Origin: a virus
Length of the DNA stretch: 29,342 nt
IMG/VR virus record: IMGVR_UViG_3300023272_000009
Location: 1-29,342 of that record
Reading direction: 5' to 3' (one strand)
Part shown: piece by piece, positions 1,858-28,836 of the stretch
Numbering within the stretch: the first letter of the stretch is position 1
Layout of the letters: the number at the start of each line of letters is the position of its first letter
Translations under genes and position numbers: made by a program
Notes under the pieces: model-generated
Database searches by the model: none
Seen by the model: the letters and a program-made list of their open reading frames with translations, nothing else
What the model was told of the DNA's origin: nothing

Positions 1858-2390
1858 GCATTACCGGCACCATTCAGACGCCAGTTGTCGAAAGCCTCAC
1901 ACACTCGTTGCTTATCGATCAGGCCGCAAAATGGCTACGGCGGCAGGGTTGCGCAATTGTCATCACGGACATGGCGCACCAAGGCCCAGAGATCCCTGAC
2001 GCCATCGGCTGGCGTGGGCGCTTCGCAATCCTTGTTGAGTGCAAAGCTTCGCTGGCCGATTTTCGCGCCGACGCCAAGAAACCATTTCGCCAAGAACCGT
2101 CGCGTGGCCTTGGGACGCACCGTTATTATTGCGCGCCGCGCGGGCTGCTGAGAACCGACATCCTGCCACCTCAATGGGGACTTTTGGAATGGGACGGAAG
2201 GTCAATGTGGGTCTCGCGCAAGGCTGAAATCCAACGCCACGAAGAGGGCGCACGCGAAGAAATACAGCTTCTCATATCGGCAATGCGCCGAATCGCTGGC
2301 GACGCTCCGAAAGGCATTAGCGTGAAATGCTACACATTCGAAACCAAGAACCGCGCAACGCTGGGATTCCAGACCGCAGATACCGTATGA
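1854..2390 (+). CDS. PD-(D/E)XK nuclease-like protein
   Basis: 178 aa from ATG 1854 (overlapping the previous stop). The sequence shows a restriction-nuclease-like core: Glu46-Ile-Pro-Asp49 followed by FAILVECKASLADFRADAKK with Glu62 and Lys64, that is D...E-x-K, then THRYYCAPRGLL and PPQWGLLEW. This order (ECK-DF-D-KK, then YY-aP-GL, then WGLlE) is typical of a family of phage/MmcB-like hypothetical proteins predicted to be PD-(D/E)XK nucleases. It sits between the recombination exonuclease and the adenine methyltransferase, so it could act in DNA repair or recombination; a modification-dependent nuclease is an alternative. The fold call is fairly confident, the substrate unknown. Confidence 0.75.
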   Translation: MSITGTIQTPVVESLTHSLLIDQAAKWLRRQGCAIVITDMAHQGPEIPDAIGWRGRFAILVECKASLADFRADAKKPFRQEPSRGLGTHRYYCAPRGLLRTDILPPQWGLLEWDGRSMWVSRKAEIQRHEEGAREEIQLLISAMRRIAGDAPKGISVKCYTFETKNRATLGFQTADTV

Positions 2391-3058
2391 AACGCGATCC
2401 CGACGATTACGCCGACCGCATGGAAGATGCGAAGGACGCCGGTTACAGCAACAGCGAGGCGCGCAGCTTGGCTGGCTCTGGGCTGAGACGAGGAAAGTTC
2501 GCTGATGTTGAGCTGGATCGGAAGCCAGCGAGTCAGGCTGTACTCGATATAGGATTCGCGCACGATCGAACAACAGGAAAAGAGGATTGGTTGACGCCAC
2601 CTGAAATCGTTCGCGCGCTTGGGCCTTTCGACTTAGATCCATGTTCGCCGCTGCCGCGGCCTTGGGACACTGCGCAGAGACATTACACGATCGCGGACAA
2701 TGGCCTTTTAAAGCCCTGGGGTGGTCGAGTGTGGATGAATCCACCTTACGGTAATGAGACCGAACGCTGGATGCGCCGACTCGCGAACCATGGGAACGGC
2801 ATTGCGCTTATTTTTGCCCGAACCGAGACGAAATCGTTTTTCCCGTGGGTGTGGGATTATGCGACCGCGCTATTTTGGATCAAGGGACGGGTGAACTTTT
2901 TCACGAAGGAAGGAAAACGAGGCGGAACGGCTGGTGCTCCTTCAGTGCTGGTTGCGTATGGCCAGTACAATGCAGAAAGGCTGAAGAAATGCGGCTTTGA
3001 AGGCCATTACTCTACGAATGTCGGTGTGGCTGGAACTGAGAGCGGAGGAGCGCATTGA
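2387..3058 (+). CDS. Dam-like phage DNA N6-adenine methyltransferase
   Basis: 223 aa starting at ATG 2387. Belongs to the phage 'DNA N-6-adenine-methyltransferase' (Dam, PF05869) family: DWLTPPEIVRALGPFDLDPC (substrate/SAM region, residues 68-86), the catalytic motif WMNPPYG with N-P-P-Y at 118-121, and the C-terminal GRVNFFTKEGK and GAPSVLVAYG. The enzyme transfers a methyl group from SAM to the N6 of adenine in a short target. An extra ~60-residue N-terminal segment is charged and probably partly disordered. No restriction partner is visible, so it is an orphan methyltransferase that may protect phage DNA or mark it for regulation. Overlaps both neighbours by 4 nt. Confidence 0.9.
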   Translation: MKRDPDDYADRMEDAKDAGYSNSEARSLAGSGLRRGKFADVELDRKPASQAVLDIGFAHDRTTGKEDWLTPPEIVRALGPFDLDPCSPLPRPWDTAQRHYTIADNGLLKPWGGRVWMNPPYGNETERWMRRLANHGNGIALIFARTETKSFFPWVWDYATALFWIKGRVNFFTKEGKRGGTAGAPSVLVAYGQYNAERLKKCGFEGHYSTNVGVAGTESGGAH

Positions 3059-3731: not shown

Positions 3732-3850
3732 ACACACCCACTTTTCGCGCGCAGGAACAACTTGCACCAGTCACGGGCTCGGGAGTGCCCACGCTGGAAA
3801 CTCCGATGCCTGATGGCTTAGGGGCGCGGAATACTTTTACACTGCTATGA
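3728..3850 (+). CDS. Very small hypothetical ORF (40 aa)
   Basis: A 40-codon ORF from ATG 3728 to TGA 3848-3850. It overlaps the methyltransferase stop upstream and the ASCH gene start downstream by exactly 4 nt each, which makes it a plausible real gene. Composition is Thr/Pro/Gly-rich with no hydrophobic segment or cysteine motif. It is too short for family assignment and could be a translational-coupling leader for the ASCH gene. It fills the only otherwise empty stretch in this module. Confidence 0.45.
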   Translation: MNTPTFRAQEQLAPVTGSGVPTLETPMPDGLGARNTFTLL

Positions 3851-4551
3851 AAGAGCGCCCCATCCTTTTCAGCGGACCCATGGTCCGCGCCATCCTCGCC
3901 GGCACAAAAACTCAGACCCGGCGGATTGTAAAAGATACGAGTCAGCTTCACGGACTAATTCATCCCGCGGTCAAAGCAATCACTCACCGCGGCGAGGGAT
4001 GGTACGGCTTCGATGCGAGCGAAAGAGTCAAGACGCAGTACATCACAACATTCCCGCTGCATACGATCAGGTGCCCCTACGGGGTGCCCGGTGATCGTCT
4101 TTGGATAAAGGAGACGTGGAAAGTCGCCTCGAATCTTGACGAATTCACACCTACCCAGTTGGGCGAAGGGTTGGCCGGTCGCGCCGATATCCGGTATTTG
4201 GCAGATCCAGATACAGATCTGAACGGAAAAACTCGGGTCTCCATCCATATGCCCCGCTGGGCGTCCCGGCTGAATCTTGACATCACCGGCATCCGCATCG
4301 AGCGCTTGCAGGAGATCAGCGAAGCCGATGCGAAGGCGGAGGGCATCGAGGGAGTGAAGGCGGTCGATGATCGGCGCATCACGGTGTGGAGAGATTACCA
4401 GACCAAGTGCGGCTTTCTCAATCAGACAGACCCGGCGACCAAAGGCCCGATCGCGAGTTATCGAACGCTGTGGGATTCCATCAACGAAGAGCGCGGCTTT
4501 GGGTGGGAGAAAAACCCGTGGGTGTGGGTCGTCGAATTCAAACGGCTATGA
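3847..4551 (+). CDS. ASCH-domain phage protein
   Basis: 234 aa. The opening RPILFSGPMVRAILAGTKTQ followed by TRRIV is the textbook start of phage ASCH/PUA-like proteins; later elements include VPGDRLWIKETW, SIHMPRWASRL, ITGIRIERLQEISEADAKAE and a closing NPWVWVVEFKRL. The ASCH fold resembles PUA domains and is thought to bind RNA or modified nucleic acid; some family members act on modified cytidines. In phages the role is not established. Its place between three DNA methyltransferases and a VRR-NUC nuclease suggests nucleic-acid modification or recognition, but this is inference. Starts at ATG 3847, overlapping the previous stop. Confidence 0.88.
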   Translation: MKERPILFSGPMVRAILAGTKTQTRRIVKDTSQLHGLIHPAVKAITHRGEGWYGFDASERVKTQYITTFPLHTIRCPYGVPGDRLWIKETWKVASNLDEFTPTQLGEGLAGRADIRYLADPDTDLNGKTRVSIHMPRWASRLNLDITGIRIERLQEISEADAKAEGIEGVKAVDDRRITVWRDYQTKCGFLNQTDPATKGPIASYRTLWDSINEERGFGWEKNPWVWVVEFKRL

Positions 4552-4982
4552 AACTCGCGCCAGACAACATCCCGCAGCATATCGTCGATAAGATGACCTC
4601 GGAGGAACGCAAGTCGCGCGGCCTGTTTTCGAGCGCCGAACGGCTGGCGCTTTCGCGTAAGTCGTCACACCAGGCGGATACGCGGGCAGAGCGTGAGCTG
4701 CAACAGGACATCGCTCAGTATCTCAGACTGCGCGGAATCCCGTTCATCAATCCGCCGATGCATAAGCGCTCCATGCTCCCTGATGGCTGGCCCGATTTCA
4801 CTCTTGCGTATCGCAGTGTTCCAATCGTGATCGAGGTTAAAAACGAGGCGGGCGTTGTGAGCGATGAGCAATCCCGGATGATGGACCTGCTCAAGGCCGG
4901 CGGCTGGGTTGTGCGCGTAGTGCGATCGCTGCCTGAGGTCAAGGAACTGATGGATGGCTTAGAGGATCGGAGGGTTGTGTAA
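4548..4982 (+). CDS. VRR-NUC domain endonuclease
   Basis: 144 aa from ATG 4548, overlapping the ASCH stop. The C-terminal ~100 residues are a minimal VRR-NUC domain (PF08774, PD-(D/E)XK superfamily): helix ELQQDIAQYLRLRG, then GWPDFTLAY with Asp83, IVIEVKNEAG with Glu96 and Lys98, SDEQSRMMDLLKAGG with Gln108, and VVRVVRSLPEV. Stand-alone phage VRR-NUC proteins are structure-selective or Holliday-junction-type nucleases in characterised cases; eukaryotic FAN1 carries the same domain. The N-terminal 40 residues look disordered and basic. It probably resolves branched replication or recombination intermediates. Confidence 0.88.
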   Translation: MKLAPDNIPQHIVDKMTSEERKSRGLFSSAERLALSRKSSHQADTRAERELQQDIAQYLRLRGIPFINPPMHKRSMLPDGWPDFTLAYRSVPIVIEVKNEAGVVSDEQSRMMDLLKAGGWVVRVVRSLPEVKELMDGLEDRRVV

Positions 4983-4983
4983 A

Positions 4984-6930
4984 ATGACCTATTTACCAAG
5001 TACCGATCCTACATCCGTTGGTCGTCGATCCACTAGACCGCTCCGCATTGCGGATTTGTTCTGCGGCGCGGGCGGTACCTCTGCCGGTGCCTGCGAGGCC
5101 GCCATCGAGTGCGGCTATGTACCCGAGCTTACCGCTATCAACCATTGGGAGATCGCCATTGCCACACACGCACTCAATCACCCCGGCGCGCGACACCTTT
5201 GCACGGGCGTGGATAGCGTGAACCCGCGCGATCTTTACGCCCCCGGAGAGCTATCGCTTCTATGGGCATCGCCCGAGTGCACGCACCACAGCGTAGCCCG
5301 CGGCGGCAAACCGATCCACGAGCAAAGCCGCGCCACCGCATGGTGCGTAGTGCGCTGGGCGGATGCGCTGCTTCCTCCCGTGATCCTAATTGAAAACGTG
5401 CCAGAGTTCGTCACGTGGGGGCCGCTTGATTCGAAAGGCCGCCCGTTGCAGCGTCGGAAAGGAGAAATCTTCCATGCGTGGAAATGCGCTATCGAGGCGC
5501 TGGGCTATCGTGTCGATTGGCGAGTCCTGTGCGCTGCTGACTACGGAGATCCCACGACGCGCCGACGCCTCTTCGTGCAATGCGTGCGCGGCCGCCGAAA
5601 GATCGTATGGCCCACGCCTACTCACGCCCCGCAGCAGGAAGACAGCGCTGGTCTTCTCTTCGGTGCCGCGCCCCGAAAACGCTGGCGCGCAGCCCGCGAG
5701 ATAATCGATTGGGACATCGCGGCACAGAGCATCTACGAGCGCAAACGCCCGCTGAGCAACAAGACTATGGCCCGCATCATGGCCGGCTTAAAGAAGTTTG
5801 GCCTAAAGAGCTTCGTTATGTCCGCCGGAGGCCCCGAATGTCCCGCGCGTCCCACCGATCAGCCGATGGGAACAATACTCACTCGCGACCATCGTGCGGT
5901 CGTGGAGCCGTTCATCGTCCCAAACTTCGGAGAGCGTGAAGGCCAGACACCTAGAACGCACTCCGTCAATGAACCACTACCCGCCGTCACCAGCCATGGA
6001 GCGGGTGCATTAGTAGAGCCGTTTATCATTGGGGCTGGCGGGCCGGAATACGCCGCGAAGCCACAGTCCGTGAATGACCCAATGAATACGGTGACCACGG
6101 AAAATCACCGGGCGCTGGTCGAGCCCTTCATCGTCGGCTGCGAACACACGGGCGCCAATGGCTCCGAAGTCCGCCCGATCGACGACCCGCTCTCCACCAT
6201 CACGGCGAATGCGCGCAAGGGACTGGCGCAACCTTTCCTCATCTGCATGGAACATCAGGGCAGCGTTCGTGATGTGGATAAACCAATGCCGACCATCACC
6301 ACGGCAAAAGGCGGCGCAATCGGAGTAGCCGAGCCTTTCCTCGTGAAATTGCGCGGAACGAACGATGCGGCCGACGTGAACCAGCCATCGCCCTCCGTGA
6401 CCGCCAGCGGCGGCACCCTCGGCCTGGCAGAGCCGTTCCTAGTGCATGTCGCCCATGAAGGCGGCGACCGCGGGCGTTCCGTGGATGAGCCGTTGCCAAC
6501 GGTGTGCGGTAATCGCGGGGAAGTCGGGCTATGCGAGCCTTCGCTACTCCCTCAGCATGGCGGCGGTGCCCTGCGTCCAGTGAGCCAGCCTTGCCCCACG
6601 ATCACAACTGATGGGGCAGTCGGGATAGTAGAACCATTCCTTGTCGAGTACTATGGGACTGCGGGCGCGCAAAGCGTTGATGACCCTCTCGATACCGTCA
6701 CAACCAAAGACCGTCACGCTCTGGTCCGTCCTGTCGTCATCATCGACGGCCAGCGGTATCTTCTCGATATCCGCTTCCGAATGCTCCAGCCACACGAGTT
6801 AGCTGGGGCGCAAGGGTTCCCGAAAGACTATAAATTTTCCGGAAACAAAACCCAGCAAGTCAAACAAATCGGCAACGCCGTCCCGCGCAACCTAGCGCGA
6901 GCATTGGTAAGGGCCGTACTCGAGCAATGA
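4984..6930 (+). CDS. DNA (cytosine-5) methyltransferase with nine-repeat target-recognition region
   Basis: 648 aa from ATG 4984 (GGAGGG at 4969-4974 as Shine-Dalgarno; the TTG at 4975 is less likely). C5-methyltransferase motifs in order: I, DLFCGAGGTSAG (24-35); IV, ASPECTHHS with catalytic Cys99 in a PEC rather than PPCQ context; VI, ENVPEF (137-142); VIII, DYGDPTTRRRLF (186-197); and C-terminal IX/X, LQPHELAGAQGFPKDY and KQIGNAVPRNLA. The enzyme flips out a target cytosine and methylates C5 using SAM. Residues 276-587, where the target-recognition domain should be, consist of nine imperfect repeats (listed separately), making the protein nearly twice the usual minimal length. No restriction partner is seen. 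It overlaps the replication gene by 4 nt. Confidence 0.93.
   Translation: MTYLPSTDPTSVGRRSTRPLRIADLFCGAGGTSAGACEAAIECGYVPELTAINHWEIAIATHALNHPGARHLCTGVDSVNPRDLYAPGELSLLWASPECTHHSVARGGKPIHEQSRATAWCVVRWADALLPPVILIENVPEFVTWGPLDSKGRPLQRRKGEIFHAWKCAIEALGYRVDWRVLCAADYGDPTTRRRLFVQCVRGRRKIVWPTPTHAPQQEDSAGLLFGAAPRKRWRAAREIIDWDIAAQSIYERKRPLSNKTMARIMAGLKKFGLKSFVMSAGGPECPARPTDQPMGTILTRDHRAVVEPFIVPNFGEREGQTPRTHSVNEPLPAVTSHGAGALVEPFIIGAGGPEYAAKPQSVNDPMNTVTTENHRALVEPFIVGCEHTGANGSEVRPIDDPLSTITANARKGLAQPFLICMEHQGSVRDVDKPMPTITTAKGGAIGVAEPFLVKLRGTNDAADVNQPSPSVTASGGTLGLAEPFLVHVAHEGGDRGRSVDEPLPTVCGNRGEVGLCEPSLLPQHGGGALRPVSQPCPTITTDGAVGIVEPFLVEYYGTAGAQSVDDPLDTVTTKDRHALVRPVVIIDGQRYLLDIRFRMLQPHELAGAQGFPKDYKFSGNKTQQVKQIGNAVPRNLARALVRAVLEQ
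5809..6744 (+). repeat. Nine tandem ~35-aa coding repeats inside the C5 methyltransferase
   Basis: Nine consecutive units of about 32-37 residues. Each has a variable start, often Gly-rich (SAGGPE, GAGGPEYAA, CEHTGANG, LRGTNDAA, AHEGG, QHGGG), then V-(N/D)-x-P-x-x-T-(I/V)-T, a short variable loop, and a near-constant end (V/A)EPF(I/L)V. The ends read in order VEPFIV, VEPFII, VEPFIV, AQPFLI, AEPFLV, AEPFLV, CEPSLL, VEPFLV, VRPVVI. At the DNA level the units have diverged strongly (different codons for EPF), so this is an old, selected protein repeat rather than a recent duplication. It lies exactly where the target-recognition domain belongs. Confidence 0.88.
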
Positions 6931-26553: not shown

Positions 26554-28836
26554 ATGCGAACCGACTTCATCGCGGACGCGAATTCGCCGCGCAAGGACAG
26601 GATCTATGAGGACTACATCTCCGCGAACGCCGGGGATATCACTGACTTTGTTCGCAACGATACGCTGATTGAATACAGCGTCCAGCCGGTCGTGCGGACG
26701 CCCGCCGGCAGCCCGACGCCGTTGGTTGCCGACTACGAGTCAACCGATACATTCCGAATCGGCGTCGGCCCCGTGGATACGCAGCCGACCAGCGGGACGT
26801 TTCGGTTGATCGTCAATGGCACCGATACCGGGCTGACGCAGCTGGATTACAATATCACCGCCGCGAACCTTCAGACTGCGCTCTCGGCGCGATTCTCGGC
26901 GAACAGCAAACCGGGATGCACTGTCACTGAGATTGCCGATGGTGTTTACCAGGTCGATGCCATTTCAAATGGCGCTGTCACGGCGGGCTTTCTTGTCAGC
27001 GACAACACGAACCTCGTCCCGTCGTCCGCCGTCACGATCGCCGAGCAAACGCTCGGCAGCGCGTCCAGTAAGTACCAGTACCTCATCGTCATTCGGCAGC
27101 TTCCCATCGCCTACAGTGAGCCCGTGGAAGCGCTGCCGGATGCGGGGGTAAGTAGCGACCCGATCCAGACCGGCAGCGCAACGGAAAACCGCATCGAGGA
27201 AATCAGCTTCGTAGCGCCGGATACCTACGGTGGAGCATTCACGGTGGATGCGGTAGTCGCCCCGCAAACGCTCACGATCGAAAGCGTCAGCGTAGCGAAT
27301 CCGACGGTGATTACATTCACGGGTAACCACGGGCTCGAATCCGGGATGCAAATCCTCATCCCGAACAACAACGGCAGCACGCCCACGATCGCCGGGCTGC
27401 ACACGTTCACAAAGACCGGCGCCGATACCGGAACGATCCCGGTCCATGTGACAATAGCCGGGAGCGCGAGTGTCACGGCGGGGCGGCACCTCGCCGCAAC
27501 GTGCGGCATTGCGAATCCCCTGATGACCGCAGAGGAGTTTTCGACGGTCCTCGCCGGTCACCCACTGATCAAGTATCAGGATTCGAACGGAAGCCCGAAT
27601 AACATCAAGGTCACAAAGCAGAGCGGAAAGTTTCAAATCGAATACATCGGGACTCTCGGCCTTTCCTCGTGGCCGTCCACGGGCGCAACCAATATCGACT
27701 TGCTGGCCCCCAAGGGCCGCATCGGGTTTCTCAATCTCAATACGACGAGCCTCTACAAGTATTCGCTGACGCAGTCTGGTGCCAGTTTTGAGTTACCCTT
27801 TTCGATTCAGCGCGAGCGCGCAAACGGCGAGGTAAAAACGCTCGTTCTGGCGAAGATCACGATCCAGAAAGACATCCTCGACATTACTTCGCTGGTGCCA
27901 GTTCCGACGCCAAGCTATTACACGGCAACGCAGATCAATCAGAAGTTCACGACATCCAATTTGCTCTATGTGGATAAGGCGGGTACCGACTCAACCGGGG
28001 CTCGCGGAAGGTTCGATCTTCCGTTTGAATCCATCGCCGCCGCCGTCGATGCGGCCGAGGCTGGCGATACGATCGTGATCCGACCGGGGACGTATGTGGA
28101 TCCTGCCACGGGTTTGATCGCGATCAAGGCTAGTTGTACTGTGATCGGCCTAGGTGGTGTGACGATCGATGTGAGCGCCGGGGATGGGATCGTACTGGCT
28201 GAGAATGCGTCGATGCGACATGTGGACGTGATCACCAGCGACGATGCAACCTGCCCCGTCTCCATCACGGGCACCGATGGCGCCGTGGAGTTCACGCATT
28301 GCCGCATCACCGGCCTCATCGATGCCGTGATTCACAACGGAAGCAGCCTCGCCATCTTCCGCGGCTGCGAGCTTACGAGCAACCAGGACGCCTATTTCAC
28401 TCAGGGTAGCGCCGGCAATGCGAAGTTCTACAATTCCCGAATCCGCGTGTATGGCGGCAACGGAATCGCCAATACCCTAAAGGCGATCGGTCTCACCAGC
28501 GGCGGTCATGTGGAGTTGTGGAATTGCGATGTGGAAGCCGATGGCCTCGCCGTCGCCCAGCCCGCCTACGCGATCCGCCTCGACACTGGCACCATACGCA
28601 TCGCGAATTCCCGCATCACCGCACGATCTGATGCCGGAACCGCGCTGCCCATCTATGGCGGCACGGAAGTAACCGCGATCCATGCCAGCGTCATTCTCGC
28701 CGGCGACGGCGCCACGTACTCCGTCACGTCGTCCGCACCGAACACCGTAATTCCCGCATTCGCCTCCGTTTTCAACCTCGCCCCCGATTCCAATACCTCA
28801 CTCAAAGGCGCCCTCATCGATGCCGATGCCGCATGA
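26554..28836 (+). CDS. Tail fibre/spike with right-handed beta-helix domain
   Basis: 760 aa from ATG 26554. N-terminal ~460 residues are a string of beta domains (TFRLIVNGTDTGLTQLDYNI; SVANPTVITFTGNHGLESGM; SFELPFSIQRERANGEVKTL), compatible with attachment to the tail tip and a BppU-like upper baseplate role. Residues ~470-760 form a pectate-lyase-like parallel beta helix: NLLYVDKAGTDSTGARGRFD, PFESIAAAVDAAEAGDTIVI, RPGTYVDPATGLI, then regularly spaced turns such as VEFTHCRITGLIDAVIHN, LAIFRGCELTSNQDAYFT and VELWNCDVEADGL. Such domains bind or cleave surface polysaccharide; no catalytic residues can be assigned. It is the likely receptor-binding protein. Confidence 0.75.
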   Translation: MRTDFIADANSPRKDRIYEDYISANAGDITDFVRNDTLIEYSVQPVVRTPAGSPTPLVADYESTDTFRIGVGPVDTQPTSGTFRLIVNGTDTGLTQLDYNITAANLQTALSARFSANSKPGCTVTEIADGVYQVDAISNGAVTAGFLVSDNTNLVPSSAVTIAEQTLGSASSKYQYLIVIRQLPIAYSEPVEALPDAGVSSDPIQTGSATENRIEEISFVAPDTYGGAFTVDAVVAPQTLTIESVSVANPTVITFTGNHGLESGMQILIPNNNGSTPTIAGLHTFTKTGADTGTIPVHVTIAGSASVTAGRHLAATCGIANPLMTAEEFSTVLAGHPLIKYQDSNGSPNNIKVTKQSGKFQIEYIGTLGLSSWPSTGATNIDLLAPKGRIGFLNLNTTSLYKYSLTQSGASFELPFSIQRERANGEVKTLVLAKITIQKDILDITSLVPVPTPSYYTATQINQKFTTSNLLYVDKAGTDSTGARGRFDLPFESIAAAVDAAEAGDTIVIRPGTYVDPATGLIAIKASCTVIGLGGVTIDVSAGDGIVLAENASMRHVDVITSDDATCPVSITGTDGAVEFTHCRITGLIDAVIHNGSSLAIFRGCELTSNQDAYFTQGSAGNAKFYNSRIRVYGGNGIANTLKAIGLTSGGHVELWNCDVEADGLAVAQPAYAIRLDTGTIRIANSRITARSDAGTALPIYGGTEVTAIHASVILAGDGATYSVTSSAPNTVIPAFASVFNLAPDSNTSLKGALIDADAA

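What the first reader, a model, noticed from the sequence alone, without database searches (positions are those of the whole stretch)
5809..6744. C5 methyltransferase whose target-recognition region is a nine-unit tandem repeat
Seen: a complete set of C5-MTase motifs (I, IV, VI, VIII, then IX/X) flanks nine imperfect ~35-aa units sharing P-x-x-T-(I/V)-T and ending EPF(I/L)V, precisely in the place of the target-recognition domain. DNA sequences of the units have diverged, so the repetition is old and maintained. Known: multispecific phage MTases carry several target-recognition elements between motifs VIII and IX. Inference: each unit could form one blade or hairpin of a solenoid that reads DNA, possibly with unit-specific contacts, giving a modular or multi-specific recognition array.
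Basis: partly seen in the sequence, partly recalled or inferred. Interest (0 to 1): 0.7.

Follow-up and report, generated by a model that had tools for sequence, protein, structure and literature searches.

The report
Phage methyltransferase with nine swappable DNA-readers
A phage gene makes a DNA-methylating enzyme that carries nine short, interchangeable modules where related enzymes carry one DNA-reading module; the same modules turn up, added, dropped and reshuffled, in many other phages, so the enzyme probably protects phage DNA at many different restriction sites at once.

Summary
ORF 4984-6930 (648 aa) is a C5-cytosine methyltransferase whose region between motifs VIII and IX is nine ~33-aa units (aa 276-586), far beyond chance. 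It belongs to a large, mostly phage family (425 INPHARED records match, 302 over most of the length). In 84 distinct relatives I found 489 units, 2-11 per enzyme. Of these, 487 have their closest relative in another protein rather than in their own array, and 24 unit types each recur in at least 5 arrays. Near-identical enzymes differ by exactly one whole unit. Between-type differences sit in two short blocks flanking a shared P-x-x-T-(I/V)-T strand, as expected for a target-recognition domain (TRD) with two recognition loops. Single-unit relatives exist, including a DISARM DrmMII. The TRD region of the multispecific Bacillus phage enzymes carries the same P-x-x-T-(L/V/I) signature. Best reading: a multispecific C5-MTase with about nine modular, swappable TRDs. 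A regular DNA-reading solenoid with a basic face is not supported: AlphaFold gives low confidence for units 1-8 and the array is net acidic. Target sequences are unknown. This is a new, greatly expanded variant of a known kind; no held paper describes it.

The parts
4984..5808 (+). catalytic domain, motifs I-VIII, of a C5-cytosine methyltransferase (aa 1-275)
   Evidence: Pfam DNA_methylase; AlphaFold pLDDT mostly above 90; best PDB matches DNMT1, M.HhaI, M.HaeIII
5278..5280 (+). catalytic Cys99 in the motif IV variant W-A-S-P-E-C-T
   Evidence: invariant in alignment A2; SPEC in 55 of 82 relatives, with no Pro directly before the Cys in any of the 82
5809..5919 (+). unit 1, type G (SAGGPECPARPTDQPMGTILTRDHRAVVEPFIV)
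   Evidence: matches unit 8 of L001 at 0.80
5920..6030 (+). unit 2, type E (FGEREGQ..SHGAGALVEPFII)
   Evidence: 0.82-0.87 similar to units in arrays with only 58-60% core identity
6031..6135 (+). unit 3, type G-like (second of two G units in this array)
6136..6243 (+). unit 4 (rare type 'an')
6244..6345 (+). unit 5, type D (MEHQGSVRDVDKPMPTITTAKGGA)
   Evidence: matches L001 unit 2 at 0.72
6346..6444 (+). unit 6, type C (LRGTNDAADVNQPSPSVTASGG)
   Evidence: matches L001 unit 6 at 0.84
6445..6549 (+). unit 7, type L
6550..6645 (+). unit 8, type B (PQHGGGALRPVSQPCPTITTDGA)
   Evidence: matches L001 unit 9 at 0.77
6646..6741 (+). unit 9, type A (EYYGTAGAQSVDDPLDTVTTKDRHALV), the commonest and usually last unit
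   Evidence: 60 of 84 arrays, last in 53, never twice; last unit confident in the window model and best-resolved unit in the L054 model; resembles the TRD segment shared by the SPbeta-type enzymes
6742..6930 (+). C-terminal part, motifs IX-X (RFRML...QGFPKDYKF...GNAVPRN)

Best explanation
This is a phage-encoded multispecific C5-cytosine methyltransferase. One catalytic domain is fitted with about nine interchangeable target-recognition modules of ~33 aa. Each module has a shared structural strand (S-V-D-x-P-x-x-T-I/V-T) flanked by two type-specific stretches that would contact bases. Each module would direct methylation of its own short site, one module at a time, so that phage DNA escapes many host restriction enzymes. 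Arrays evolve by gain, loss and replacement of whole modules. Shown here: module boundaries, a shared repertoire, whole-unit turnover, two type-specific blocks per unit, and single-unit relatives. Inferred: DNA contact, one specificity per module, one-at-a-time use, and the anti-restriction role.
For: Units lie exactly where the TRD sits, between motifs VIII and IX. 487 of 489 units are closest to a unit in another protein; median best similarity is 0.37 inside the own array against 0.75 elsewhere. 24 types occur in at least 5 arrays. Same-type pairs within one array are depleted: at similarity >0.55, 4 observed against 24.1 expected, minimum of 2000 shuffles 9. Exact one-unit differences between relatives with 93%, 92% and 86% identical cores. 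At ~70% core identity only about a third of units have a counterpart. Type-specific variation concentrates at offsets -14 to -8 and +7 to +10 around the anchor Pro. Single-unit enzymes of ~310-330 aa carry one type-A-like unit, one of them DrmMII beside DrmA and DrmB. In the multispecific SPbeta enzyme the general unit HMM matches only two segments, both in the TRD region, and in SPbeta/SPR-type enzymes the type-A, D, J and R profiles pick specific segments there that reach or nearly reach the floor of 250 shuffles.
Against: No target was measured. A general unit profile and a type-A profile find no C5 methyltransferase in the PDB sequence set, and hhalign of the unit profile with M.HhaI finds nothing, so homology to known TRDs rests on place, signature and weak local matches. 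AlphaFold is unsure about units 1-8. Unit order is mostly conserved among arrays that share three or more units (894 concordant against 52 discordant pairs), so exchange is mainly gain, loss and replacement. Within-array depletion is not significant in the most diverged subset (core <60%), and the window has two type-G units.
Confidence: 0.74

Rival explanations
1. Composite reading: the units act together as a solenoid or bead chain along DNA and define one longer or degenerate site, so unit number sets site length rather than the number of sites.
For: Tandem regular spacing; unit order largely conserved; the last unit is usually type A.
Against: Enzymes with one or two units carry the same or similar unit types; array net charge is -14; AlphaFold shows no continuous solenoid; arrays change by whole units between close relatives.
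Confidence: 0.08
2. Only one or a few units (most likely the last, type A) read DNA; the others are spacers, binders of other proteins, or decayed units kept by drift.
For: Only the last unit is confidently modelled against the core; type A is last in 53 of 60 arrays.
Against: The two blocks that distinguish unit types have low within-type entropy in the 14 well-sampled types, so other units are under type-specific constraint too; many arrays lack type A or have another type last.
Confidence: 0.12
3. The units serve a different purpose, such as binding a host restriction factor (a decoy or anti-restriction surface) or a regulatory role, not DNA specificity.
For: No direct DNA-binding data; acidic array.
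Against: Position in the TRD slot, the signature shared with the TRD region of multispecific Bacillus phage enzymes, and single-unit relatives with no other TRD candidate.
Confidence: 0.06

Closest known systems
Multispecific C5-MTases of Bacillus phages SPbeta, phi3T, SPR, rho11s, H2 (Behrens 1987, Wilke 1988, Trautner 1996; cited in PMC12707154, PMC4081073, PMC8936443)
   Same: One C5 catalytic domain with several TRDs in tandem between motifs VIII and IX. Segments in their TRD region carry the same P-x-x-T-(L/V/I) signature: PTLTTMGGGH and EPAFTVNTIDRHG in SPbeta, PTITTNKGEG in the SPR-like L182.
   Different: Two or a few TRDs instead of 2-11 units; motif IV has Pro directly before the Cys (FPCP, SPCQ) instead of PEC; whole-protein similarity is weak (best piece 21% over 77 aa). 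Units here are more regular and drawn from a repertoire shared by many phages.
DrmMII of DISARM
   Same: Same PEC motif IV and one type-A-like unit in the TRD slot in L162 and L164.
   Different: A single unit; part of a host defence system (DrmA and DrmB next to L162), not a phage array.
M.HhaI
   Same: Same fold: AlphaFold model aligned over 283-287 residues at rmsd 2.4-2.6, Z about 28.8. Lining up its T250-L251 with the unit's T-(I/V) puts Q237, R240, Y254 and G257 (contact residues from my own knowledge) in or at the edge of the two type-specific blocks.
   Different: One TRD; the unit profile finds no significant sequence match to it, so the register is an inference.

Membership tests
C5-cytosine DNA methyltransferases (PF00145) | motifs I, VI (ENV), VIII, IX/X in order, with the TRD between VIII and IX | tested here: met
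   Pfam E 2.9e-32; PDB matches; alignment
C5-cytosine DNA methyltransferases (PF00145) | Pro-Cys dipeptide at the catalytic cysteine | tested here: not met
   Motif IV reads SPEC; none of 82 relatives has Pro directly before the Cys. Cysteine and ENV are invariant and the profile and fold match, so the class assignment stands
multispecific C5-MTases (TRD arrays) | several TRD-like modules in tandem between motifs VIII and IX | tested here: met
   nine units
multispecific C5-MTases (TRD arrays) | T-(L/V/I) signature in each module | tested here: met
   offsets +3/+4 are T then V/I in most types; same signature in SPbeta and the SPR-like enzyme
multispecific C5-MTases (TRD arrays) | each module confers its own target, independently of the others | not testable with these tools
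   needs methylation sequencing; circumstantial support
SPbeta-type clade | close similarity of the catalytic domain | tested here: inconclusive
   both match phrog_116, but the best BLASTP piece is 21% over 77 aa and motif IV differs
DISARM DrmMII | full-length match to a DrmMII model | tested here: not met
   P0001 matches PDLC02654 with best stretch on aa 20-205 only (E 6.4e-40) and scores higher with a type II MTase model
DISARM DrmMII | drmA/drmB neighbours | not tested
   window genes other than this one were not scanned with PADLOC; they look like a phage replication and packaging region

The most novel reading that the evidence does not exclude
Hundreds of phages share a combinatorial library of at least two dozen ~33-aa DNA-reading cassettes, mounted up to eleven at a time on one methyltransferase, each with its own short target. 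Comparing arrays with methylomes would then decode a cassette-to-sequence code. One guess: type A reads GGCC, the target that, from my own knowledge, SPbeta and SPR share, as they share the matching TRD segment.
Probability: 0.55. Interest if true: 0.78.

Novelty: new variant of a known kind. Interest (0 to 1): 0.62.

Why it matters
Multispecific phage methyltransferases have been known since the 1980s, with a handful of TRDs per enzyme. Here the principle seems to be scaled up to nine (in relatives up to eleven) very small modules from a shared repertoire of at least 24 recurrent types. That would let a phage counter many restriction systems with one gene, would explain how such protection evolves (adding or swapping a 33-aa cassette), and gives natural pairs that differ by exactly one unit, so the specificity of each unit type can be read off directly. 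Small portable C5-specificity modules would also be useful tools.

Tried and rejected
(1) Finding known TRDs by sequence: unit profile against PDB sequences, no C5 MTase; type-A profile against PDB, none; hhalign of the units with M.HhaI, nothing; Pfam scan of single units, nothing. (2) Regular solenoid: AlphaFold of the window protein (pLDDT 66.5; units 1-8 mostly under 50) and of the three-unit relative L054 (83.5; only the last unit well resolved) gave no continuous solenoid; alignment quality may be the limit. (3) E. coli prophage alleles of the Eeyore enzyme: 12 near-full-length copies at 98-99% identity, aligned end to end in one piece, so no information on unit turnover. (4) GBS Dcm (PMC10746215) as a characterised relative: it has a PCQ motif, so I left it aside. 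(5) CCWGG methylation by DISARM is stated in PMC5957327 and PMC12926258, but I could not show that the enzyme studied carries a type-A unit, so I do not transfer the target. (6) Host relatives could not be drawn because the window is a virus record.

Full report
What was checked. It is a C5-cytosine methyltransferase (Pfam E 2.9e-32; PDB sequence matches DNMT1, M.HhaI and M.HaeIII; structural matches Z about 24-31). Between the conserved N-terminal part and motif IX lie nine units with anchor prolines at aa 294-568. Nine P-x-x-[TSA]-[IV] with eight regular spacings occur; 20,000 shuffles of the same residues reached at most 6 and 2. At DNA level units share only about 47% around the anchor, so the array is old.

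The family. tblastn finds relatives in 425 phage records, 302 of them over at least 80% of the length, from Gordonia, Streptococcus, Mycobacterium, Pseudomonas, Arthrobacter, Vibrio and others, including Halobacterium phage phiH and E. coli phage Eeyore. Two scans of viral contigs gave 98 loci with relatives. From these, plus the Eeyore gene and the window itself, I extracted 84 arrays with catalytic cores under 99% identical (481 of 489 units; 2 to 11 units per enzyme, most anchors 32-41 aa apart). Motif IV is SPEC in 55 of 82 proteins and none of the 82 has Pro directly before the Cys.

Units behave as interchangeable modules. For 487 of 489 units the most similar unit is in another protein; median best similarity is 0.37 within the own array and 0.75 elsewhere. 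The pattern holds when only proteins with catalytic cores under 70% identical are kept (0.38 against 0.64). Same-type pairs inside one array are rarer than if units were dealt at random (similarity >0.55: 4 against 24.1 expected, minimum of 2000 shuffles 9); this shuffle ignores phylogeny and loses significance for the 24 most diverged proteins. Average-linkage clustering gives 24 types present in at least five arrays; type A (YYG...TTKDR) is in 60 arrays, never twice, last in 53. The window array reads G-E-G-an-D-C-L-B-A; the 52% identical L001 reads unclassified-D-I-E-aj-C-L-G-B-A, so shared types sit at different places. Close relatives differ by exactly one unit: L009/L013 (93% identical cores) by 33 aa, L071/L050 (92%) by 35 aa, L065/L048 (86%) by single units at two places. 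At about 70% core identity only 36% of units have a counterpart. Window unit 2 is 0.82-0.87 similar to units of L025, L021 and L042, whose cores are only 58-60% identical to the window's. A caution: among arrays sharing at least three units, order is mostly conserved (894 concordant against 52 discordant pairs; 33 of 192 array pairs have an inversion), so gain, loss and replacement dominate over transposition.

Anatomy of a unit. Offsets -4 to +6 around the anchor proline are shared by most types (S-V/I-D-x-P-L-P-T-V/I-T-T). Type identity sits mainly in two blocks, offsets -14 to -8 and +7 to +10, where entropy between types exceeds that within types by about 1.5 to 2.7 bits. That is what a TRD with two recognition loops around one strand would look like. 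Aligning M.HhaI residues T250-L251 (sequence checked) with T-(I/V) puts its DNA-contacting residues Q237, R240, Y254 and G257 (my own knowledge) in or at the edge of these blocks. The register is an inference: profile searches did not find M.HhaI.

Links to characterised enzymes. In the multispecific enzyme shared by SPbeta and phi3T, the general unit HMM matches at only two places, PTLTTMGGGH and EPAFTVNTIDRHGV, both in the TRD region. Against shuffled TRD regions, the type-A profile picks EPAFTVNTIDRHG (or EPEFTVNTIDRHG) in all four Bacillus-type enzymes, type D picks PTITTNKG in the SPR-like L182, and types J and R pick PTLTTMGGGH in SPbeta, with p about 0.004-0.008, the floor of 250 shuffles being 0.004. 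Scores are low, about two dozen profiles were tried, and these are short matches, so this is supporting evidence only. hhalign puts type A on SPbeta residues 356-371 with low probability. EPAFTVNTIDRHG is common to SPbeta and the SPR-like enzyme; from my own knowledge the target that SPbeta and SPR share is GGCC, so type A reading GGCC is a guess to test. Single-unit enzymes of ~310-330 aa with ASPECTHH and one type-A-like unit exist in bacterial genomes; L162 and L164 match DrmMII (E 5.5e-83 and 1.4e-86), L162 lies next to DrmA and DrmB, L164 and L168 next to Vsr. One unit therefore appears to be enough for an enzyme.

Structure. AlphaFold of the window protein is confident for the catalytic domain and the last unit but not for units 1-8. 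A three-unit relative (L054, pLDDT 83.5) again resolves the last unit best. No continuous solenoid appears, and the array is net acidic (22 K+R, 36 D+E). I therefore favour independent modules used one at a time over a solenoid that reads DNA along its length.

Known or new. Tandem TRDs in one phage C5-MTase are known (Bacillus phages; papers cited in PMC12707154, PMC4081073, PMC8936443). The searches of the held open-access papers found no description of this family's unit repertoire, but subscription papers and REBASE were not searchable. I file it as a new variant of a known kind.

Noticed in passing
window 2327-3058: A second methyltransferase, Dam-like N6-adenine type (PF05869, E 2.5e-11; phrog_111), so the phage may modify both adenine and cytosine.
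   Followed up: partly
window 4536-4982: Weak VRR-NUC / Holliday-junction-resolvase-like nuclease ends directly upstream of the methyltransferase start.
   Followed up: partly
window 5278-5280: The family lacks the Pro of the canonical Pro-Cys catalytic dipeptide (PEC, LEC, PDC, PSC instead), while ENV is invariant; how this changes catalysis is not explained.
   Followed up: partly
L162:24-5984, L164, L168: Single-unit relatives: DrmMII-like genes beside DrmA/DrmB (L162) or beside a Vsr endonuclease (L164, L168).
   Followed up: partly
L019 and E. coli prophages: In 12 E. coli genomes the stretch matching the Eeyore gene is annotated both as a DNA cytosine methyltransferase and, overlapping it, a phage N-6-adenine-methyltransferase; the window also pairs the two kinds of gene.
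   Followed up: no
window 3847-4551: Conserved phage protein of unknown function (phrog_874) two genes upstream.
   Followed up: no
window 26554-28836: 760-aa protein with a weak right-handed beta-helix match below Pfam's cut-off, perhaps a tail spike.
   Followed up: no
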